From Muribaculaceae bacterium (lineage in GTDB: Bacteria; Bacteroidota; Bacteroidia; Bacteroidales; Muribaculaceae), in NCBI GenBank assembly GCA_017964485.1, contig JAGCRW010000029.1:1-40618 (forward strand): DNA of 40,618 bases. Reading direction: 5' to 3'. The notes below the pieces were generated by a model that was given only the letters and a program-made list of their open reading frames with translations, was not told where the DNA came from and did no database searches. The translations under genes and the position numbers were made by a program. Below, one piece after another: positions 69 through 27,425 of the stretch. The stretch's first letter is position 1; each line of letters opens with the position of its first letter.

Positions 69-176
69 AATAAAAACGAAATAGTCAACTCCCTTTAGGG
101 ATAAGTTTAATCGAGTCGACTTTTAAAAGGTGAAAAACTGATAAAAACAGTCAACCAAAATCAGGCAATCACAAAA

Positions 177-16925: not shown

Positions 16926-18113
16926 ATGAACTCCGCACCACAATCACTCAGGCGCCATATCGCTATCTTTGGTCGCCGCAACGTGGGCAAGTCATCCTTG
17001 CTCAACGCCATCACAGGTCAGCAGGTTGCCATAGTCTCACCCGAGGCTGGCACAACCACCGACCCCGTGAACCGCGCCATGGAGATTCTGCCTCTGGGTC
17101 CTTGTCTGCTCATCGACACTGCTGGTTTTGATGATGTGGGCATCGTGGGCGAACTCCGCAACGAGCGCACACATAAAGTGCTCGATCAAGCCGATTTAGC
17201 GATTTTGGTGCTTGACCAAGCCATCGATTTAAGCATAGAAAAACAGTGGCTTGATAAGTTGCAACGCCTTGAGATTCCCACCGTTGTGGTACTCAATAAA
17301 GTGGATGCTATTGGCAATATTGAAAGTTTATTTGAGAGTTGTGCAAAATATTTGGGCATCACGCCGATTGCTGTGAGCGCCAAAAAGCATGAGGGAATTG
17401 ACGAGCTACGCAAGGCTCTTGCCCATGCCGCTGGTGATGACGAGGAAACAAGTCTCACAGCCGACCTTGCCAAACCTGGGGACATAGTGCTGCTCGTGAT
17501 GCCTCAAGACCCACAGGCACCAAAAGGACGACTCATTTTGCCTCAAGTGCAGACAATCCGCGACTTGCTTGACAAGCATTGTATAATTGTGAGTTGTGGA
17601 GTTGACACACTAGAGAATAGCCTCAACTCGCTGCGTGAGCCACCCACACTCATCATCACTGATTCACAAGTTTTTGCTCAAGTCTATGAAAAGAAGCCCG
17701 AAGGCAGCCTTCTCACCTCATTCTCGGTGCTGATGGCTGGCTCAAAAGGCAATATGGATGCGCTTATTGAAGGTGCAAAGGCCATTGACCGCCTCACCCC
17801 ACAGTCGCGCGTGCTAATCGCAGAGGCATGCACCCATGCCCCAATGAGTGAGGACATAGGTAGAGAGAAGATTCCACGCATGATTCGGAAGAAATATGGC
17901 GCGAACATCGCCTTCGACATTCACGCTGGCAAGGACTACCCTGCCGACTTGGAAAAATATGACCTGATAGTGCACTGCGGGGCGTGCATGTTCAACCGTC
18001 GCCTGATGCTTTCACGCATAGTGCGCGCACAAGAGCAAGGTGTGCCAATCACCAACTACGGCCTCGCCATCGCTCATCTGCAAGGCATCCTTGACAAAGT
18101 ATCACTGCCGTAA
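16926..18113 (+). CDS. hydF: [FeFe]-hydrogenase H-cluster maturation GTPase HydF
   Basis: Scaffold GTPase that assembles the 2Fe subcluster and delivers it to apo-HydA. The 395-residue protein has an N-terminal GTPase domain with P-loop GRRNVGKSS (about 17-25), switch DTAGFDD (about 65-71) and NKVD (about 126-129), then a dimerisation region and the C-terminal cluster-binding motif CTH (about 300) ... HCGAC (about 346-350). Full length. Last gene of the maturation operon, 63 nt after hydG, ending at a two-way terminator shared with the converging hydrogenase genes. Confidence 0.96.
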   Translation: MNSAPQSLRRHIAIFGRRNVGKSSLLNAITGQQVAIVSPEAGTTTDPVNRAMEILPLGPCLLIDTAGFDDVGIVGELRNERTHKVLDQADLAILVLDQAIDLSIEKQWLDKLQRLEIPTVVVLNKVDAIGNIESLFESCAKYLGITPIAVSAKKHEGIDELRKALAHAAGDDEETSLTADLAKPGDIVLLVMPQDPQAPKGRLILPQVQTIRDLLDKHCIIVSCGVDTLENSLNSLREPPTLIITDSQVFAQVYEKKPEGSLLTSFSVLMAGSKGNMDALIEGAKAIDRLTPQSRVLIAEACTHAPMSEDIGREKIPRMIRKKYGANIAFDIHAGKDYPADLEKYDLIVHCGACMFNRRLMLSRIVRAQEQGVPITNYGLAIAHLQGILDKVSLP

Positions 18114-18153: not shown

Positions 18154-19947
18154 TTAATCAGAAAGAATCGACTTATCTCTGAAGTGGGTGTGTAGGAGTT
18201 TATGTGCCTTTTTACCCAGTGGCTCGCCAAGAAACTCTTCATACACCTTTCTCACCGCAGGGCTTTCATGGCTCTTGCGCACCATCCTTGTGACATCGGT
18301 TGCATACATAGCTCGCTGCCTAGCCTCAAGTACCGAGATGTCACCGTGGTGATAAGGCTGACCAGTGCCACCAACGCATCCACCAGGACAAGACATTACC
18401 TCAATGAGATGATAGTCGAGTTCGCCTGCGCGGAGTTTGTCCATCACGATGCGCGCATTGTTAAGTGTATGTACCACACACACCTTCAGTTCAAATCCAT
18501 CTATGTCGATTGTTGCCTCGCGAATACCGTCCATACCACGAACTTGAGAAAACTCCAACTTAGGCAACTGTTTGCCAGTAAATGTCTCATAAGCAGTTCG
18601 CAACACAGCCTCAGTCACGCCACCTGTGGTGCCAAAGATATGTCCTGCGCCAGTAGCATTGCCGAGAGGATCATCAAACGTTCCGTCGGGCAATGAAGCA
18701 AAGTCAATACCCTGATTTTTAATCATTTCAGCCAACTCTAGTGTGGTGATGCTGCAATCCACATCAGGGATGCCATCATAGATAAACTCATCACGCGCAC
18801 ACTCATATTTCTTGGCCACACAGGGCATTATTGAGATTACCGAGATATTCTCGCTTGGAATGCCTATTTTCTCTGCCCAATATGATTTGGCAAGCGTTCC
18901 AAACATCTGCGCCGGCGACTTGCAGGTAGAGGGATATTCGCGCAGGTCAGGATAGTCGTTCTCAAAGAAATTAACCCATGCCGGACAACACGACGTTGTC
19001 ATAGGCAACTTCACATCAGGGTCTCCAGCCATTTTGCGCTTGAGGCGGTCAATGAGCTCGGCGCTCTCTTCCATAATGGTGAAATCGGCTCCGAAATTAG
19101 TGTCAAACACGTAGTCAAATCCCAATTGCCGTAATGCAGTAATCATCTTCCCCGTCACAACTGTGCCTGGCGCCATTCCAAACTCCTCGCCAAGCGCAAA
19201 TCGCACAGCTGGCGCAGTTTGAGCGATGACAAGTTTGTCGATATTATTAATATCGGCAAGCACATCATTGATTGAGTTGCGCTCGTCAAGCACACCAATG
19301 GGGCCATCGATAGCGTCGAACTTACATTTTGTTTTACACTTACCACAACATGTACACTTGTAAGGGTTTATCGTATGAGTCTGCTTAACAACTCCATCAA
19401 TGGCATTCACCGGACAATTACGCTTGCAGGCAGTGCATCCTCGGCATTTCTCAGAGTCAATAGCGTAGGACAGCACATTCAAGAACCGCTTGCCGCCAAT
19501 CTCGTAGATATAGTGATTGAGCATCGAGTCAAGCGACACGGGGCGTTTGAATGAGCTCCATTGCTGTGACTCCACCTCTATGTGGTGTGCCGCCACTTCA
19601 ACGTATCTCAACTCATCAACGAGCTCGCCGCGCACCACATGTTTCTCGACAATCACGTTCACATCTTCAGGACTAACGTGAGTATAAGTTATGTTGTCGG
19701 GAAGAATGCGCACGATGGGGCCCTTTGCACAGAAACCGAAGCATCCCGAAGTCACCACATCAACCATATCGTCGATGCCGTGGGCATGCAACATCACCTT
19801 GAAGAGATTGATAATGCGCTCACTGTCATTTTTGCGACAGCCTTTACCCGAGCAACACTGCACCTGGACATACTCATGGGCTTTCAATCCATATTTTTGT
19901 CCATTTTCAATTGTTTGTGGCTCAGAGTTTATTTGTCTATCTGGCAT
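18154..19947 (-). CDS. second [FeFe]-hydrogenase with HydB-like ends and HydA-like catalytic domain
   Basis: 597 residues. Domains in order: thioredoxin-like [2Fe-2S] domain (about 25-116; Cys32, 37, 69, 73 in CCSGKGC ... GCFGFC), a linker, two [4Fe-4S] motifs (Cys168/171/174/178 and 198/201/204/208), then the H-cluster domain (from about 235) with TSCCPAW, MPCVAKKYE and EVMSCPGGCVGG. All four H-cluster Cys and the proton-relay Cys are present, so it should be active. The first domain and the ferredoxin domain resemble the two ends of HydB, and the catalytic domain resembles HydA next door, so it looks like a HydB that lost its flavin/NAD part and gained an H domain. There is no plant-type ferredoxin domain. 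Last gene of the hydrogenase operon, 70 nt after hydC. Physiological partner unknown. Confidence 0.9.
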   Translation of the reverse strand: MPDRQINSEPQTIENGQKYGLKAHEYVQVQCCSGKGCRKNDSERIINLFKVMLHAHGIDDMVDVVTSGCFGFCAKGPIVRILPDNITYTHVSPEDVNVIVEKHVVRGELVDELRYVEVAAHHIEVESQQWSSFKRPVSLDSMLNHYIYEIGGKRFLNVLSYAIDSEKCRGCTACKRNCPVNAIDGVVKQTHTINPYKCTCCGKCKTKCKFDAIDGPIGVLDERNSINDVLADINNIDKLVIAQTAPAVRFALGEEFGMAPGTVVTGKMITALRQLGFDYVFDTNFGADFTIMEESAELIDRLKRKMAGDPDVKLPMTTSCCPAWVNFFENDYPDLREYPSTCKSPAQMFGTLAKSYWAEKIGIPSENISVISIMPCVAKKYECARDEFIYDGIPDVDCSITTLELAEMIKNQGIDFASLPDGTFDDPLGNATGAGHIFGTTGGVTEAVLRTAYETFTGKQLPKLEFSQVRGMDGIREATIDIDGFELKVCVVHTLNNARIVMDKLRAGELDYHLIEVMSCPGGCVGGTGQPYHHGDISVLEARQRAMYATDVTRMVRKSHESPAVRKVYEEFLGEPLGKKAHKLLHTHFRDKSILSD

Positions 19948-19963
19948 ATCGTATGTTTATTTA

Positions 19964-19995
19964 AAACGGTCATGCCATCGCGGGCATGACCGTTT
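19964..19995 (-). terminator. hairpin between hydC and the second hydrogenase
   Basis: Perfect 13-bp stem AAACGGTCATGCC/GGCATGACCGTTT with a 6-nt loop. On the minus strand it is followed by only a short TTTT, so it is likely a partial terminator or mRNA-processing hairpin that sets the level of the last gene. Confidence 0.7.
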
Positions 19996-20017
19996 ATTAT
20001 ATTAAGGTGTGGAAAAA

Positions 20018-20506
20018 TTAATTATCCACCTCTTCGAGAATCTTCTGAACATCCTTAGGCTGGAGACGTCCGTAAACCTTCTCGCCAATGGTTACTACTG
20101 GTGCAAGACCGCAGGCACCCACGCAGCGTAGGCAGTCAAGAGAGAACTTGCCGTCAGGGGTTGTCTCTCCCACCTCAATGTTGAGGATGCGCTTGATCTC
20201 CTCGAGCAGTTTCTCAGAACCGCGCACGTAGCAAGCAGTACCGAGGCACACCGAGATTGGGTGCTTGCCCTTAGGTGTCATGGTGAAGAACGAATAGAAT
20301 GTCACAACACCATAAACCTTAGAAGCTGGTATGTTGAGCTTGCGGGCGATGATGCGCTGCATCTCCTCAGGGAGATAGCCGTGCATCGACTGTGCCTCAT
20401 GCAGGATATTGATAAGCTCGCCTGGTTTGTTACCATGCTTGTCGCAGATGGCCTCCACCTGCTCAATGACATTACATGCCAATTTCATTTCTTTTGCTTT
20501 TGCCAT
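20018..20506 (-). CDS. hydC: NuoE-like [2Fe-2S] subunit of the trimeric hydrogenase
   Basis: Thioredoxin-like [2Fe-2S] protein, the HydC/NuoE subunit that passes electrons between HydB and HydA. The 162-residue protein has an N-terminal helical bundle (LINILHEAQSMHGYLPEEM) and the cluster ligands Cys87 and Cys92 (CLGTAC) with Cys128 and Cys132 (CVGAC). Full length for the family. Located 25 nt after hydA and followed by a strong hairpin before the second hydrogenase gene. Confidence 0.93.
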   Translation of the reverse strand: MAKAKEMKLACNVIEQVEAICDKHGNKPGELINILHEAQSMHGYLPEEMQRIIARKLNIPASKVYGVVTFYSFFTMTPKGKHPISVCLGTACYVRGSEKLLEEIKRILNIEVGETTPDGKFSLDCLRCVGACGLAPVVTIGEKVYGRLQPKDVQKILEEVDN

Positions 20507-20531: not shown

Positions 20532-22292
20532 TTACTTAATAGATTTATCAAAATAATGAGTGTGCAACAAGTGGTGAGACTTCTCGCTCAGAGGCTCGCC
20601 CAAGAATTCCTTGTAGAGCTTCTGGATGTCGGGATTCTCATGACTCTTGCGGATGGGCTTGCCTTCGTCCTCTGCATAGAGAGCATCGCAACGTTGTTGG
20701 ATAACACTGAAGTCGCCATGGTGGTAAGGCTGACCGGCACCGCCGATGCAACCGCCTGGACATGCCATAACCTCAACCACATGGTAATCGAGTTCGCCAG
20801 CGCGAAGTTTGTCCATGATAATGCGAGCGTTGCTCAAGGTGTGGGCTACACAAATCTTGAGGTCGAAACCGTTGATGTCGATTGTTGCCTCACGAATTCC
20901 CTCAAAACCGCGCACTTGGTCAAAGTTGATGCGAGGCAGAGTCTTGCCAGTGTAAACCTCATAAACCGAACGCAAAGCAGCTTCCATCACGCCACCAGTA
21001 ACGCCGAAGATGGCACCAGCACCAGTTGATTCACCGAGAGGACTGTCGAAGTCGCTGTCGGGCAGCTGAGCAAAGTTGATGTTGGCACGCTTGATGAGAC
21101 GAGCAAGCTCGCGGGTCGAGATACTGTAGTCCACATCGGGATTGCCGTTAACCTTGAACTCTTCACGGCCACACTCATACTTCTTAGCCAAGCAAGGCAT
21201 GATAGACACCACCACGAGTTTCTCGCGTGGGATGCCCATCTTCTCTGCCCAATATGTTTTAGCAATTGCACCAAACATCTGAGCTGGAGATTTGGCAGTC
21301 GAAGGATAGTCGAGCAAATCGGGATAGTTGTGCTCAAAGAAGTTCACCCAAGCTGGGCAGCACGAAGTCATGATTGGCAACTTCACGCTCTTGTCGCCAG
21401 CAAGATATTTCTTGAGGCGGTCGAGAATCTCGTAGCCCTCTTCCATGATGGTAAGGTCGGCAGCGAAGTCTGTGTCAAACACATAGTCAAAACCGAGGTC
21501 ACGCAATGCGGTGGCAAGCTTGCCAGTAACGATACCAGGCACGCCAAACTCCTCGCCCAAGGCGAAGCGCACAGCGGGAGCGGGTTGAGCAACAACCACC
21601 TTGTCGGGGTCGGTGATATCGGCCATGAGCTGGTCGGTATAGTCACGCTCGGTGAGAGCGCCCACAGGGCAAACTGCCACACACTGACCGCAATATGTAC
21701 AATCGGTATCTACAAACATGCGGTCGAAGGTTGGAGCGATAGTGGTGTCAAAACCACGACGGATAGCGCCAAGAACGCCTACGCTCTGAACCTCGTTACA
21801 AACTGTCTCGCAACGGCGGCAGTAGATGCACTTCTCCATATTGCGGGTAATAGCAGGAGTAACTTCGTTCTTGCGTTGGCTCTTCTCGCCGTCATTATAA
21901 GGCATCTCACGGATATTCAGGCGCATTACCAAGCGCTGGAGCTCACAATTGCTGCACTTAGGGCAAGTGAGGCAATCATTGGGGTGATCACTAAGTATGA
22001 GCTCGGCAATAGTCTTGCGAGCGCGAATCACGCGTGCCGAATTGGTGTAAACCACCATGTCGGGCATACAAGCAGTGGCGCAAGCAGGTGCCAAGTTGCG
22101 ACGTCCCTCAACCTCTACCACACACAAGCGGCAAGAAGCGGGTTTGTTCTTCACACAAGTGCCTTTGAGATCAATGTGGCACAGTGTGGGGATATCGATG
22201 CCGACAAGTTTACCGGCCTCAAGCAGTGTTGTGCCTTTGGGCACTTCCACTACGTGGTTGTCTATTGTAAGTTTTATCAATTTCTCTTCCAT
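20532..22292 (-). CDS. hydA: [FeFe]-hydrogenase catalytic subunit
   Basis: 586 residues with the multi-cluster layout of HydABC catalytic subunits: a plant-type [2Fe-2S] domain (Cys38, 54, 57, 71; an extra Cys46 in a lengthened loop), the His-ligated cluster motif HPNDCLTCPKCSNC (about 102-115), two [4Fe-4S] motifs (CIYCRRCETVC and CTYCGQCVAVC), and the H domain with TSCCPAW, MPCLAKKYE and EVMACPGGCIGG. All H-cluster Cys are intact. With HydB and HydC it should form a trimer coupling H2 to NAD(H) and ferredoxin, probably by flavin-based bifurcation; the direction in vivo (fermentative H2 release versus uptake) is inference. 21 nt after hydB. Confidence 0.95.
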   Translation of the reverse strand: MEEKLIKLTIDNHVVEVPKGTTLLEAGKLVGIDIPTLCHIDLKGTCVKNKPASCRLCVVEVEGRRNLAPACATACMPDMVVYTNSARVIRARKTIAELILSDHPNDCLTCPKCSNCELQRLVMRLNIREMPYNDGEKSQRKNEVTPAITRNMEKCIYCRRCETVCNEVQSVGVLGAIRRGFDTTIAPTFDRMFVDTDCTYCGQCVAVCPVGALTERDYTDQLMADITDPDKVVVAQPAPAVRFALGEEFGVPGIVTGKLATALRDLGFDYVFDTDFAADLTIMEEGYEILDRLKKYLAGDKSVKLPIMTSCCPAWVNFFEHNYPDLLDYPSTAKSPAQMFGAIAKTYWAEKMGIPREKLVVVSIMPCLAKKYECGREEFKVNGNPDVDYSISTRELARLIKRANINFAQLPDSDFDSPLGESTGAGAIFGVTGGVMEAALRSVYEVYTGKTLPRINFDQVRGFEGIREATIDINGFDLKICVAHTLSNARIIMDKLRAGELDYHVVEVMACPGGCIGGAGQPYHHGDFSVIQQRCDALYAEDEGKPIRKSHENPDIQKLYKEFLGEPLSEKSHHLLHTHYFDKSIK

Positions 22293-22313: not shown

Positions 22314-24221
22314 TTAGAAAATTTGAATAGCATCGAAGTGGCAACGCGACTGGCACATACCACAGCGGATGCACTTGAATGGATTAATAACATGAGGTTT
22401 GCGAACATCGCCCATGATAGCGTCGGCAGGGCAGTTGCGTGCACAAGCGCCGCAGCCTTTACACTTCTCGGGGTTAACGGTGTAGGTCAAGAGAGCCTTA
22501 CACTGCTTAGCGCGGCAAGTGTGCTTCTTAACGTGCTCCACATATTCATCATAGAAATTGTCGATAGTTGACAATACAGGGTTTGGAGAGGTCTGGCCAA
22601 GGCCACAGAGTGCAGTGTCTTTGATAGTTGCAGCGAGCGATTTGAGGTGCTCGATGTCGTCCATAGTGCCCTTACCCTCTGTAATGCGTGTCAAAATCTC
22701 CAACATACGCTTGTTACCGATGCGGCAAGGTGTGCATTTGCCACACGACTCGCCAACGGTGAACTCAAGGTAGAACTTGGCAACCGATACCATACAGTCG
22801 TCTTCGTCCATAACAATCATACCACCCGAGCCCATCATTGAGCCAGCGGCTCCAAGGCTCTCGTAGTCAATAGGAATGTCGAGGTGCTTCTCGGTCAAGC
22901 AACCTCCTGAAGGGCCACCAGTTTGAACAGCTTTAAACTTCTTGCCGTTCTTCACGCCACCACCAATGTCGTAGATAATCTCACGCAAGGTAGTGCCCAT
23001 GGGGACCTCAATAAGGCCCACATTATTGATCTTACCTGCCAAAGCAAATACCTTAGTACCCTTTGACTTCTCAGTACCGATAGAAGCAAACCAGTCGGCG
23101 CCCTTAGTAAGAATAATGGGGACATTGGCAAGTGTCTCTACGTTATTAACATTGGTTGGGTATCCCATGTAGCCGCTTTCGGCGGGGAAGGGAGGTTTGA
23201 GAGTTGGCTCACCGCGCTTGCCTTCCATTGAGTGGATAAGAGCAGTCTCCTCACCACAAACGAATGCACCAGCACCATAACGAATCTCGATGTCGAAGTC
23301 GAAATCGCTGCCCATGATTTGCCTGCCAAGCATGCCATACTCACGCGCTTGGTCGATAGCAATCTTAAGGCGGTGCACTGCCAATGGGTACTCGGCACGA
23401 ATATAGATAAGACCCTCGCTTGCACCAATGCAGTAGCCGCACAATGCCATAGCCTCGATCACTGAGTGGGGGTCACCCTCCATAATGGAGCGGTCCATAA
23501 ATGCACCTGGATCACCCTCGTCGGCGTTACAAACCACATACTTATGCTCGGCCAGGTAGTTGCGTGCAAAGCCCCACTTCATACCAGTTGGGAAGCCTGC
23601 GCCACCACGTCCGCGGAGTCCAGACTTTTTGATGATGTCAATAACCTCCTCGGGAGTTTGGCTCTGTAAAGCGTTGGAAAGTGCTGCATAACCGTCGCGT
23701 GCTATGTACTCGGCAATGTTTTCGGGATCAATCAGACCACAGTTACGAAGGGCAACACGCTTCTGTTTACGGTAGAAATCCATGTGCTTAGAATCGCTAA
23801 CATGCTCATTTGTCTTAGGGTCAACATAGAGCAGACGCTCCACGCGGCGACCACCAATAACATGCTCCTTAACGATCTCATCGGCATCCTCGGGCTTCAC
23901 CTGAGTGTAGAAAGTATTGTCAGGCATTACCTTAACAATAGGGCCTTTCTCGCAGAAGCCGAAACATCCGGTTACAATCACATCAACCTTATTGGCAATG
24001 CCATTTGCTTCAATGGCAGCCTTGAGGTTCTCGACAATTTTTGCACTGCTAGAGGCTTTACAGCCAGTACCACCGCAGCAGAGTAACTCAATGTGCTCAG
24101 TTCCCACGGCCAGTCCACAGCATTTTTCACTCTCAGCAGCATAACTCAGTTCACGAACATTCAGGTTCGCCTGAGCTTTTTTCCTGAATTGAATCAAGTC
24201 TTCAAAGTTCAAGGTTTTCAC
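22314..24221 (-). CDS. hydB: NuoF-like flavoprotein subunit of the trimeric hydrogenase
   Basis: 635 residues. N-terminal thioredoxin-like [2Fe-2S] domain (Cys49, 54, 86, 90 in CCGGTGC ... GCFGFC), then the NuoF FMN/NAD(H) domain (GRGGAGFPTG at 204-213, CNADEGDPGAFMDR, FVCGEETALI), the SLBB/4Fe-4S part with SCGKCTPCRIGNKRM, and a C-terminal 2[4Fe-4S] ferredoxin domain (CKGCGACARNCP ... CIRCGMCQSRC). This is the HydB layout of bifurcating hydrogenases. First gene of the operon. Its leader (24222-24310) holds a small CTACC/GGTAG hairpin (24279-24294). Confidence 0.95.
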   Translation of the reverse strand: MKTLNFEDLIQFRKKAQANLNVRELSYAAESEKCCGLAVGTEHIELLCCGGTGCKASSSAKIVENLKAAIEANGIANKVDVIVTGCFGFCEKGPIVKVMPDNTFYTQVKPEDADEIVKEHVIGGRRVERLLYVDPKTNEHVSDSKHMDFYRKQKRVALRNCGLIDPENIAEYIARDGYAALSNALQSQTPEEVIDIIKKSGLRGRGGAGFPTGMKWGFARNYLAEHKYVVCNADEGDPGAFMDRSIMEGDPHSVIEAMALCGYCIGASEGLIYIRAEYPLAVHRLKIAIDQAREYGMLGRQIMGSDFDFDIEIRYGAGAFVCGEETALIHSMEGKRGEPTLKPPFPAESGYMGYPTNVNNVETLANVPIILTKGADWFASIGTEKSKGTKVFALAGKINNVGLIEVPMGTTLREIIYDIGGGVKNGKKFKAVQTGGPSGGCLTEKHLDIPIDYESLGAAGSMMGSGGMIVMDEDDCMVSVAKFYLEFTVGESCGKCTPCRIGNKRMLEILTRITEGKGTMDDIEHLKSLAATIKDTALCGLGQTSPNPVLSTIDNFYDEYVEHVKKHTCRAKQCKALLTYTVNPEKCKGCGACARNCPADAIMGDVRKPHVINPFKCIRCGMCQSRCHFDAIQIF

Positions 24222-25727: not shown

Positions 25728-27425
25728 TCAAGGAAATTGTAGTTTATGCTGCTTGAACTGGTCAATGTCAAGTTGCTTTAGGCCGCAGCTATCAAGTGGC
25801 AGAAAATTGTTGTGGTCGTTGATATAAAGGCGCTTGTGCGGCGTGAAATTCTTGTTACTCAGCGACAGGGCGTCTTTCTTGTAGGGGGAATAAATCCCGC
25901 TCATATCAAGAAGAGTGTGGAACACCACCATATTGGTTGACACAGGAATCGCTTTATGAGCTCGCAACTGAGCCACAGCAACGGGGTAGTTGCTGATATA
26001 GACTTGAGATGTCCACACCAACAGCGGAACGCGGAGTTGGTAATAAGTGGGCAGCGGTGAAGCGTGTAGGAACCTGCCCCTTTCATCATCAAAGATGTCC
26101 TCGCCGTGATCGCTTGTGAAGACAACGGCGCTATTCACCCCCTTAGCGTCAACCAAACGGATGATAGAAGACAACACCTTGTCTGTATTGACTATGGAAT
26201 TGTCATAGGCGTTGATTAGTTCTTTACGATACACCTTTTCGGCCGAAATCACATTATCGGGCTTGAAGACGGCATCATTTTTGGGATAACGGTCTTTATA
26301 GTTGAAGTGCGAGCCATACATATGCACAACAATAAACAACTTGCCGCCATTGTAGTTATCTAATCGCTGTTTCACGCAATCAATCAGTTCATCATCATAA
26401 TTATTGCCTGCAAATGATACCTTATCTTTCAAAAACTTCACCTCATCGGCCTCGCATCCAAATGCATCAATAAACGAGTGGTTGCGACGCTGATTGCTGT
26501 AGAAGGCAGTTTGGTAACCAGCCTCTTTATAGGCACTGATTATTCCTTTTCGGTAATAAAGACTGTCGTATCGCTCACACCCAGAACACGACATGAGCAT
26601 TGGCACGCTTTTGTGGGTAGTGTTTGACATCGTAATTGCGTCACGATACACCACCATGTTAGCAAGTGTACTAGTGCAAGGATTGGTGTTGCGGTTGTAG
26701 CCATATAGACTCCAGTTGTCGGCACGCGATGTTTCTCCAATGACAAGAATATAAATTTCAGGCACAGAATCGTGCCTTAGATTTGTGGCTTGATAAGTAA
26801 AGTATTGTGAAGTGTATTCATAATTTCTTTGTTTTGCAAAGCGGTCAATAGCAATGCCCACATTGTAAGTACCATTAATTGGGAACACATCATCTTGTGC
26901 CTTGAAGCCCTTATCGTTGAAGACATTAATTATCATCAAAATAGCGCCCAACGCCAATAATGGCAATGACCAGATACGCTGACGGCGGCGGAAGCGGTCG
27001 CTAAGCGTTGTCTTGGCACGCCAAGACACAATCGACATGGCAATGCCAAAACCATAAAGCACCACCACAAAAATTACTGCTACCAACAAATTTGACAGCA
27101 ACTCTGTGGCCTCACCAGGATTGGTGGTGAGCACATTAAGGAACATATCCACAGCTATCGGCGACTCGCCATAAAGCCACAAAAGAACAATTTGGAAAGC
27201 ACCCACAAACATAAACCAGAACAGACACCAAAATGGCTTACCTGGCTTCTTGGCTAGTGTGAACATGAAGGCGAAGAATCCCAACGGCAACACAATTTGC
27301 ACGATACGAGTCAACAGCGAAGTCGACTCAGTAAAGAACATAAAAATATTGGGCAATATCGCCAGGAACACGAATAGCCAGTAGATGTATTGCTGATTGG
27401 TGAATATATGTTTTAAACGCTTCAT
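25728..27425 (-). CDS. phosphoethanolamine transferase (EptA-like, sulfatase fold)
   Basis: 565 residues. Membrane helices in the first ~170 residues (about 15-33, 42-58, 65-85, 113-135, 152-168) precede a periplasmic alkaline-phosphatase/sulfatase domain. The nucleophile motif is GETSRADNWSLYGYNRNT (Thr232); later metal ligands include TSDHGEDIF (about 420-430) and a HASP segment. Paired Cys in MSCSGCE fit the disulfides of this family. Adds phosphoethanolamine to lipid A or another glycan, which lowers surface charge and cationic-peptide binding; the exact acceptor is not shown. Confidence 0.88.
   Translation of the reverse strand: MKRLKHIFTNQQYIYWLFVFLAILPNIFMFFTESTSLLTRIVQIVLPLGFFAFMFTLAKKPGKPFWCLFWFMFVGAFQIVLLWLYGESPIAVDMFLNVLTTNPGEATELLSNLLVAVIFVVVLYGFGIAMSIVSWRAKTTLSDRFRRRQRIWSLPLLALGAILMIINVFNDKGFKAQDDVFPINGTYNVGIAIDRFAKQRNYEYTSQYFTYQATNLRHDSVPEIYILVIGETSRADNWSLYGYNRNTNPCTSTLANMVVYRDAITMSNTTHKSVPMLMSCSGCERYDSLYYRKGIISAYKEAGYQTAFYSNQRRNHSFIDAFGCEADEVKFLKDKVSFAGNNYDDELIDCVKQRLDNYNGGKLFIVVHMYGSHFNYKDRYPKNDAVFKPDNVISAEKVYRKELINAYDNSIVNTDKVLSSIIRLVDAKGVNSAVVFTSDHGEDIFDDERGRFLHASPLPTYYQLRVPLLVWTSQVYISNYPVAVAQLRAHKAIPVSTNMVVFHTLLDMSGIYSPYKKDALSLSNKNFTPHKRLYINDHNNFLPLDSCGLKQLDIDQFKQHKLQFP

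What the first reader, a model, noticed from the sequence alone, without database searches (positions are those of the whole stretch)
18154..19947. Composite hydrogenase: HydB ends fused to a HydA catalytic domain
Seen: the N-terminal [2Fe-2S] domain (Cys32/37/69/73, GCFGFCxKGPIV) and the 2[4Fe-4S] domain (KCRGCTACKRNCP ... INPYKC) closely match the two ends of the neighbouring HydB (GCFGFCEKGPIV; KCKGCGACARNCP ... INPFKC), while the rest matches the H domain of the neighbouring HydA (APAVRFALGEEFG, TSCCPAWVNFFE, EVMxCPGGCxGG). The linker (about 130-159) even shows weak resemblance to the start of HydB's NuoF part (KRxVxL, YI, LxNxL spacing). Inference: it arose from a HydB-like gene by loss of the FMN/NAD domain and fusion to an H domain, giving a flavin-free enzyme that could draw electrons from ferredoxin or from HydB/HydC. 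All catalytic Cys are kept and no PAS or sensor domain is present, so it is not the usual sensory type.
Basis: partly seen in the sequence, partly recalled or inferred. Interest (0 to 1): 0.78.

Follow-up and report, generated by a model that had tools for sequence, protein, structure and literature searches.

The report
Hydrogenase spliced from two neighbouring subunits
Some uncultured gut bacteria, several of them from ruminants, carry a hydrogen enzyme that looks assembled from pieces of two neighbouring genes of a larger hydrogenase with the flavin/NADH part cut out, so it probably exchanges electrons only with ferredoxin.

Summary
ORF 18154-19947(-) encodes 597 aa: thioredoxin-like [2Fe-2S], 2[4Fe-4S] and a complete group A H-domain, beside hydB-hydA-hydC and hydEGF. 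It is conserved: 57 of 101 genomes of its genus, and 55 loci in a scan of 84,980 species genomes (the two sets overlap), all titled as MAGs or uncultured Bacteroidales. Samples from family, order and phylum gave no full-length copy outside the genus; other phyla were covered only by two short patterns.

Profiles show a collinear mosaic of the neighbours: HydB 25-155, a 16-residue SLBB remnant (HydB 406-421), HydB 571-633, then HydA 205-586. Trees of the three parts place them with this genus's own HydB and HydA. So a duplicated hydBA pair lost the FMN/NAD region, the Zn hinge and HydA's N-terminal clusters.

Best function: a flavin-free, ferredoxin-only hydrogenase, the reverse of the NADH-only S. 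wolfei enzyme, whose HydB lacks the modules kept here. PFOR is common in the genus; Rnf and group B hydrogenase were not detected. The electron partner is inferred, not shown. Closest known design: group A5 CbA5H. New variant of a known kind.

The parts
18154..19947 (-). composite [FeFe]-hydrogenase, 597 aa (whole gene)
   Evidence: related copies
19534..19923 (-). residues 9-138: HydB-derived N-terminal part with thioredoxin-like [2Fe-2S] domain (C32, C37, C69, C73) and the segment before the NuoF part (from HydB 25-155)
   Evidence: Pfam 19-102; hhalign 9-128 vs HydB 25-145, E 3e-47; 125-138 vs HydB 142-155 z 5.98, but 129-141 alone not above shuffles; tree
19492..19539 (-). residues 137-152: linker, 16-residue remnant of the HydB SLBB domain (HydB 406-421)
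   Evidence: 138-152 scores 34.0 vs shuffled 13.4 +/- 3.7, 0 of 500 as high; HydB rows median 36.4, best of 3,834 control ORFs 33.4
19306..19494 (-). residues 152-214: HydB-type ferredoxin domain, two [4Fe-4S] clusters (from HydB 571-633); Zn-hinge cysteines missing
   Evidence: z 13.9; tree; C-x4-C before the Fd in 0 of 54 composites, His plus C-x4-C in 60 of 60 HydB
18157..19314 (-). residues 212-597: H-domain and small-subunit-like tail, from HydA 205-586
   Evidence: junction windows z 7.7-8.5; tree 100/100
19964..19995 (-). perfect 13-bp inverted repeat between hydC and the composite, terminator-like
20018..20506 (-). hydC (NuoE-like)
20532..22292 (-). hydA (donor of the H-domain, residues 205-586)
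   Evidence: NF040763 865.6 bits, cut-off 765
22314..24221 (-). hydB (donor of residues 25-155, 406-421, 571-633)
16926..18113 (+). hydF maturase
   Evidence: TIGR03918
15447..16862 (+). hydG maturase
   Evidence: TIGR03955
14346..15425 (+). hydE maturase
   Evidence: TIGR03956

Best explanation
Origin (well supported): in an ancestor of one lineage of gut Bacteroidales the adjacent hydB-hydA pair was duplicated and the copy shrank by collinear deletions. HydB kept its N-terminal [2Fe-2S] domain, a 16-residue SLBB remnant and its C-terminal 2[4Fe-4S] domain, losing the FMN/NAD-binding part, the NuoF-type [4Fe-4S] domain and the Zn hinge. HydA kept only the H-domain. The rest became one 597-aa gene between hydC and hydF. 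Mechanism (inferred): a soluble, flavin-free [FeFe]-hydrogenase. Reduced ferredoxin, made by pyruvate:ferredoxin oxidoreductase, docks at the HydB-type ferredoxin/[2Fe-2S] end, electrons pass through the two [4Fe-4S] clusters to the H-cluster, and protons become H2. It does alone the ferredoxin half of what HydABC does with ferredoxin plus NADH, so the cell can vent ferredoxin electrons without consuming NADH.
For: Architecture and ligands. Collinear mosaic. Trees. Same gene order without the composite in another family of the order (L152: hydEGF-hydCAB) and in a relative (L150: hydBAC next to hydFGE). Purifying selection. Own transcription unit in relatives: TAnnTTTG in 34 of 36 spacers (4.9 expected), terminator-like hairpins in 18 of 36 (0.8 expected). 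The kept modules handle ferredoxin: in T. maritima HydABC ferredoxin is proposed to exchange with the HydB C-terminal clusters B3/B4, which then approach the [2Fe-2S] clusters B1 (HydB) and C1 (HydC) (PMC9499530). The ferredoxin-independent S. wolfei enzyme is described as lacking a [2Fe-2S] cluster of HydB's N-terminal domain and cluster(s) of its C-terminal domain (PMC6288185; PMC11406978). Setting: PFOR in 85 of 101 genus genomes at E <= 1e-100, 74 over cut-off, and in the window's own genome; RnfC over cut-off in 0 of 101; group B over cut-off in 0 of 101 (three sister-genus proteins as positive controls 513-533 bits, cut-off 450).
Against: No activity, partner or expression data. In bifurcating enzymes these modules work beside a flavin and HydC; B1 lies near C1 and on the far side of the FMN from the path to the H-cluster, so its use in a single chain is unknown, and some authors call this N-terminal cluster a dead end (PMC11406978). 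Losey 2020 warns that the set of Fe-S domains alone does not separate bifurcating from non-bifurcating enzymes (PMC7311640). The junction adds about 7 residues between the last ferredoxin Cys and the H-domain compared with HydA, so cluster distances are not guaranteed; no structure could be predicted. Of 101 genus genomes 25 have neither HydA nor composite at E <= 1e-20 and show no Rnf either, so members may live without this outlet (MAGs are incomplete). The built-in controls for group B gave no positive over cut-off, so that absence rests. The window's own copy lacks the promoter motif found in relatives.
Confidence: 0.6

Rival explanations
1. Alternative catalytic subunit: the HydB-type ends let it dock on HydC or on the HydBC core, making a second form of the bifurcating complex or drawing electrons from it.
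For: hydABC genes lie in the fetched stretch in 43 of the 48 loci with at least 1 kb upstream, within 500 bp in 35. In T. maritima the kept [2Fe-2S] cluster B1 pairs with HydC's cluster C1.
Against: HydA's whole N-terminal part is gone. Terminator-like hairpins and promoter motifs separate it from hydC in relatives.
Confidence: 0.2
2. Ferredoxin is not the partner: electrons come from flavodoxin or another carrier, or the enzyme mainly oxidises H2.
For: Partner choice and direction cannot be read from sequence; [FeFe]-hydrogenases are reversible (recalled).
Against: The kept modules are described as missing from the ferredoxin-independent S. wolfei enzyme; PFOR is common in the genus.
Confidence: 0.13
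3. H2 sensor of the HydS kind that controls hydABC.
For: A second hydrogenase beside hydABC; sensory C3 genes are often found with A3 genes (PMC11406978).
Against: No PAS or C-terminal extra-cluster domain; TSCCP kept in 54 of 54; within the Pfam H-domain one fixed difference from HydA (C342 for A333) at my thresholds of 95% and 90%.
Confidence: 0.04
4. It is simply a member of the known A5 subgroup (CbA5H type).
For: CbA5H is the best-scoring solved chain and its residues 26-267 align with HydB 384-633 (156 bits), so it too looks like HydB's C-terminal half joined to an H-domain; PMC9499530 already notes a domain in CbA5H similar to HydB's Zn domain.
Against: CbA5H is described with a Zn-binding SLBB domain, Fd domain and H-domain and no Trx domain (PMC13397568); the composite has a Trx domain and only 16 residues of SLBB. 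Its H-domain groups with the genus's own HydA at 100/100 (CbA5H itself was not in that tree).
Confidence: 0.02
5. Assembly artefact or decaying gene.
For: All 55 titles are MAGs or uncultured organisms.
Against: Ligand motifs in 54 of 54 near-full copies, same linker in the 29 copies printed; dN/dS at or under 0.05 where computable.
Confidence: 0.01

Closest known systems
HydABC electron-bifurcating hydrogenase (group A3 / Bfu), especially the HydB and HydA beside it
   Same: Source of the segments; residues 196-594 are 67% identical to the local HydA
   Different: No FMN/NAD domain, no NuoF-type [4Fe-4S] domain, no Zn hinge, no HydA N-terminal clusters; single chain
Group A5 [FeFe]-hydrogenase CbA5H (PDB 9rkm, 8zqd; PMC13397568 passages)
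   Same: HydB-like C-terminal half (incl. ferredoxin domain) joined to an H-domain; best-scoring solved chain
   Different: CbA5H keeps a Zn-binding SLBB domain and has no Trx [2Fe-2S] domain as described; here SLBB is 16 residues, Zn ligands are gone, Trx is present
M2-type hydrogenases (Megasphaera MeHydA, Desulfovibrio DdHydAB; PMC12645427 passages)
   Same: 2[4Fe-4S] domain plus H-domain
   Different: Extra HydB-type [2Fe-2S] domain; ferredoxin domain of HydB type
Non-bifurcating NADH-dependent hydrogenases (S. wolfei Hyd1ABC, S. aciditrophicus HydAB, Nyctotherus ovalis fusion; PMC6288185, PMC7311640 passages)
   Same: Non-bifurcating relatives of the same plan; N. ovalis is also a fusion
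   Different: They keep FMN/NADH; S. wolfei HydB lacks the modules the composite keeps
Group B [FeFe]-hydrogenase of Bacteroides (PMC12578642 passages)
   Same: Fermentative H2 outlet in gut Bacteroidales
   Different: Different family: TIGR04105 178.2 bits, cut-off 450

Membership tests
Group A [FeFe]-hydrogenase | TIGR02512 score over curated cut-off and all H-cluster Cys | tested here: met
   469.8 vs 405.95; motifs 54 of 54
NADH-dependent group A6 / HydA of HydABC (NF040763) | score over 765 bits, full N-terminal Fe-S set | tested here: not met
   585.1 bits, match starts at residue 191; neighbour HydA 865.6
HydABC / Bfu bifurcating enzyme | FMN/NAD-binding Complex1_51K domain on the chain | tested here: not met
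   absent from composite, present in HydB 197-368
HydABC / Bfu bifurcating enzyme | Zn hinge (His plus Cys-x4-Cys before the ferredoxin domain) | tested here: not met
   C-x4-C in 0 of 54 composites; His plus C-x4-C in 60 of 60 HydB
Group A5 (CbA5H type) | complete Zn-binding SLBB domain before Fd and H domains | tested here: not met
   only 16 residues of SLBB, no C-x4-C; CbA5H design from passages of PMC13397568
Sensory groups C/D (HydS, M2e/M2f) | PAS and/or C-terminal extra-cluster domain | tested here: not met
   Pfam shows only the SSU tail after the H-domain
Group B [FeFe]-hydrogenase | TIGR04105 over 450 bits | tested here: not met
   178.2 bits
Ferredoxin-dependent monomeric (M2-like) hydrogenase | 2[4Fe-4S] domain directly before the H-domain | tested here: met
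Ferredoxin-dependent monomeric (M2-like) hydrogenase | H2 evolution from reduced ferredoxin alone | not testable with these tools
   needs purified enzyme

The most novel reading that the evidence does not exclude
A natural dismantling of electron bifurcation: evolution cut the flavin out of a bifurcating hydrogenase, kept only the modules of its ferredoxin branch, and wired them to the H-cluster in one chain. This made a ferredoxin-only enzyme that runs beside its parent complex, so one cell can choose between confurcating (ferredoxin plus NADH) and ferredoxin-only H2 production using the same kit of parts. It arose independently of CbA5H, so 'HydB tail plus H-domain' would be a repeated evolutionary route.
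Probability: 0.5. Interest if true: 0.72.

Novelty: new variant of a known kind. Interest (0 to 1): 0.6.

Why it matters
It is a natural part-removal experiment on an electron-bifurcating enzyme: the pieces kept are those described as missing from the ferredoxin-independent S. wolfei enzyme, so the protein asks directly whether HydB's terminal clusters suffice to take electrons from ferredoxin without the flavin. It suggests a H2-producing route in gut Bacteroidales in which Rnf and group B hydrogenase were not detected, and several of these genomes come from ruminants, where H2 feeds methanogens. Schemes that use only the H-domain of [FeFe]-hydrogenases (as the HydDB reference set does, PMC9431212 passages) would probably file it with the bifurcating HydA proteins and so predict the wrong electron donor.

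Tried and rejected
Rejected: sensor, plain A5 member, artefact (see rivals), group B. First thought that linker residues 137-151 came from the end of the NuoF part (HydB 551-565); the profile scan ranked the SLBB stretch far higher (30.7 against 10.6). A viral-contig scan gave no relative. Plasmids: 24 records match, 0 cover 80% of the query. The Fd tree lost 18 of 20 order rows through my pattern and was redone. hhalign of the whole protein reported the N-terminal match and a meaningless second one, not the Fd part; the Fd part rests.

Limits: the genome-contig scan used two short patterns from this linker and ferredoxin domain, so composites with another linker in other phyla would be missed. 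The family (297), order (393) and phylum (395) searches are samples of Bacteroidota; their match lists were cut, but full-length copies rank at the top. Results against my linker reading: window 129-141 scores no better than shuffles (114 of 500 as high), 119-128 alone fits other parts of HydB better, 9-20 is weak (z 3.9, next best 3.5), and 140-160 is ambiguous (15.1 and 14.9 at two places). Linker windows were chosen after seeing the alignment; one search is the separate control (3 of 3,834 control ORFs reach 25, best 33.4; 2 of 64 HydB rows, partial ORFs by position, fall to 12.7 and 0.1). Rows dropped: L032 left out of A1 and of the linker set; L111 and L141 (cut by contig ends) left out of the motif and tree sets; 4 order HydA rows left out of the careful tree, present. 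In one search, 3 of 8 composite dN/dS values could not be computed. One search is a quick tree with weak forks; I rely. In one search the program warned of long branches meeting at the composites, and one order HydB (L153) fell inside the genus clade.

Full report
WHAT IS THERE. The ORF at 18154-19947 on the minus strand (597 aa) has a thioredoxin-like [2Fe-2S] domain, two [4Fe-4S] clusters and a complete H-domain with the small-subunit tail. It scores as group A (TIGR02512 469.8, cut-off 405.95), below the cut-off of the A6/HydA model (585.1, cut-off 765) and far below group B (178.2, cut-off 450). Upstream on the same strand lie hydB, hydA, hydC; downstream, convergent, hydF, hydG, hydE. The genome (a MAG, 90.7% complete) has two PF02906 genes, both here.

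DISTRIBUTION. In 297 genomes of the family (a sample) the full-length protein occurs only in the window's genus, in 30 of its 40 sampled members; apart from the window's own, 13 copies are 81-92% and 16 are 64-66% identical to it. In the genus, 57 of 101 genomes hold it (55 near full, 2 cut by contig ends), 19 hold HydA but no composite, 25 hold neither at E <= 1e-20 (MAGs are incomplete). Of 393 genomes drawn from the order and 395 from the phylum only the window's own gave a full-length hit; no other listed match starts before position 119 of the model. A scan of genome contigs (84,980 species) with two patterns from the linker and ferredoxin part gave 61 loci: 55 composites, and 6 that match only the ferredoxin part or little more, as in HydB. 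All titles are MAGs or uncultured Bacteroidales, Muribaculaceae, Prevotellaceae or Porphyromonadaceae; 7 of the 55 name a host, each a ruminant (roe deer, red deer, goat, sheep; organs named are rumen, reticulum, abomasum, duodenum). That 'RUG' means rumen genomes is recalled. No plasmid record covers 80% of the query.

HOW IT WAS MADE. Profiles of the composite (54 sequences) against genus HydB (40) and HydA (43): composite 9-128 matches HydB 25-145 (hhalign E 3e-47); 125-138 matches HydB 142-155 (z 5.98); 137-152 matches HydB 406-421, in the SLBB domain (34.0 for 138-152 against 13.4 +/- 3.7 for shuffled columns, 0 of 500 as high); 152-166 matches HydB 571-585 (z 4.4); 154-214 matches HydB 573-633 (z 13.9); from about 212 on it matches HydA from 205 (z 7.7-8.5). 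Against this, sub-window 129-141 alone is no better than shuffles (114 of 500) and other short sub-windows are weak or ambiguous. As a separate control the 16-residue linker profile scored a median of 36.4 on 64 HydB rows, while the best of 3,834 other ORFs (602,564 residues) reached 33.4. The pieces tile in the order in which they lie in HydB and HydA, and hydB lies directly before hydA, so a duplicated hydBA pair with deletions explains the gene. The donor's Zn-hinge signature (His plus Cys-x4-Cys) is in 60 of 60 HydB; its Cys-x4-Cys is in 0 of 54 composites.

TREES. H-domain: composites 100/100, composites plus genus HydA 100/100, apart from 16 HydA of the order (quick tree with 20 order rows). 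Trx: composites 100/99, inside a clade of genus HydB plus one order HydB at 96/89, with a long-branch warning. Ferredoxin (56 columns): composites 100/96; all 20 order HydB split from composites plus genus HydB at 96/95; HydA's own ferredoxin domain apart at 100/100. The same gene order without the composite is seen in L152 (another family) and L150 (a relative). Together: most simply one local origin, then descent with losses.

SELECTION AND EXPRESSION. dN/dS against the window is 0.022-0.050 in the 5 of 8 composite comparisons that could be computed (dS near saturation), like hydA and hydB. Ligand motifs are kept in 54 of 54. Within the Pfam H-domain one site is fixed differently between composites and HydA at my thresholds: C342 (54 of 54) against A333 (62 of 63), in STxKSP. 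Of the 36 loci with hydC within 450 bp, 34 spacers hold TAnnTTTG (4.9 expected, at most 12 in 200 shuffles) and 18 a terminator-like hairpin (0.8 expected, 10 shuffles); that TAnnTTTG is the Bacteroidota promoter motif is recalled. So it is probably transcribed on its own in relatives. The window's 70-bp spacer has the hairpin but not the motif.

HOW IT LIKELY WORKS. In T. maritima HydABC the HydB C-terminal clusters B3/B4 sit on a mobile domain with a Zn hinge; the authors propose that they exchange electrons with ferredoxin and come close to the [2Fe-2S] clusters B1 (HydB) and C1 (HydC) (PMC9499530, section 8 and passages). The NADH-dependent, ferredoxin-independent S. wolfei enzyme is described as lacking a [2Fe-2S] cluster of HydB's N-terminal domain and cluster(s) of its C-terminal domain (PMC6288185, PMC11406978, passages). 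The composite is the reverse: it keeps these modules, drops FMN and NAD binding, and joins them to the H-domain. Hence ferredoxin-only H2 production is the best reading. The setting fits: PFOR in 85 of 101 genus genomes (74 over cut-off), RnfC in 0 of 101 with Bacteroides ihuae as positive control, group B over cut-off in 0 of 101 (the built-in controls gave none over cut-off, so the positive controls are three sister-genus proteins at 513-533 bits). Against it: B1 lies away from the path to the H-cluster in HydABC, Losey 2020 warns against reading function from Fe-S domain sets alone (PMC7311640), 25 of 101 genomes show none of these outlets, and nothing has been measured.

WHAT IS KNOWN. The best-scoring solved chain is CbA5H, described as SLBB with Zn + ferredoxin domain + H-domain (PMC13397568, passages). 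Its residues 26-267 align with HydB 384-633 (156 bits); PMC9499530 already notes a similar Zn domain in CbA5H. That CbA5H is a HydB-tail fusion is my inference. The composite differs in having the Trx [2Fe-2S] domain and only 16 residues of SLBB without Zn ligands. The N. ovalis enzyme fuses equivalents of all three subunits but keeps the NADH part (PMC7311640, passages). Eight paper searches (listings) and passages of twelve open papers (with section 8 of PMC9499530) showed no description of this architecture; subscription papers such as Calusinska 2010 and Poudel 2016 were not read.

VERDICT. Observation confirmed, origin shown well, function inferred. New variant of a known kind.

Noticed in passing
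L125:1324-5001: In one MAG hydB and hydA form a single 1226-aa ORF (sequence changes near the end of HydB): either a natural HydB-HydA fusion or a sequencing error.
   Followed up: partly
L104, L132, L135, L140: hydA, hydB or hydC ORFs are split in these loci while the composite next to them is intact; sequencing errors or decay of hydABC.
   Followed up: no
L105, L143, L113, L096, L108: Composite with no hydABC within reach of the stretch; in L105 and L096 it stands near hydFGE.
   Followed up: partly
window 19948-20017: The hydC-composite spacer is only 70 bp here (median 220 with the stop codon in 36 loci) and lacks the promoter motif but has the hairpin.
   Followed up: partly
whole genus (101 genomes): No RnfC and no group B hydrogenase over cut-off although PFOR is common; how members without any group A hydrogenase reoxidise ferredoxin is open.
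   Followed up: partly
window 22314-24221: HydB here is 635 aa; in 18 of the 20 order HydB the match starts at its residue 36-46, while L152 and L153 match from residue 1, so they share an N-terminal extension.
   Followed up: no
window 25728-27425: Phosphoethanolamine-transferase-like protein, far below every MCR cut-off listed.
   Followed up: no
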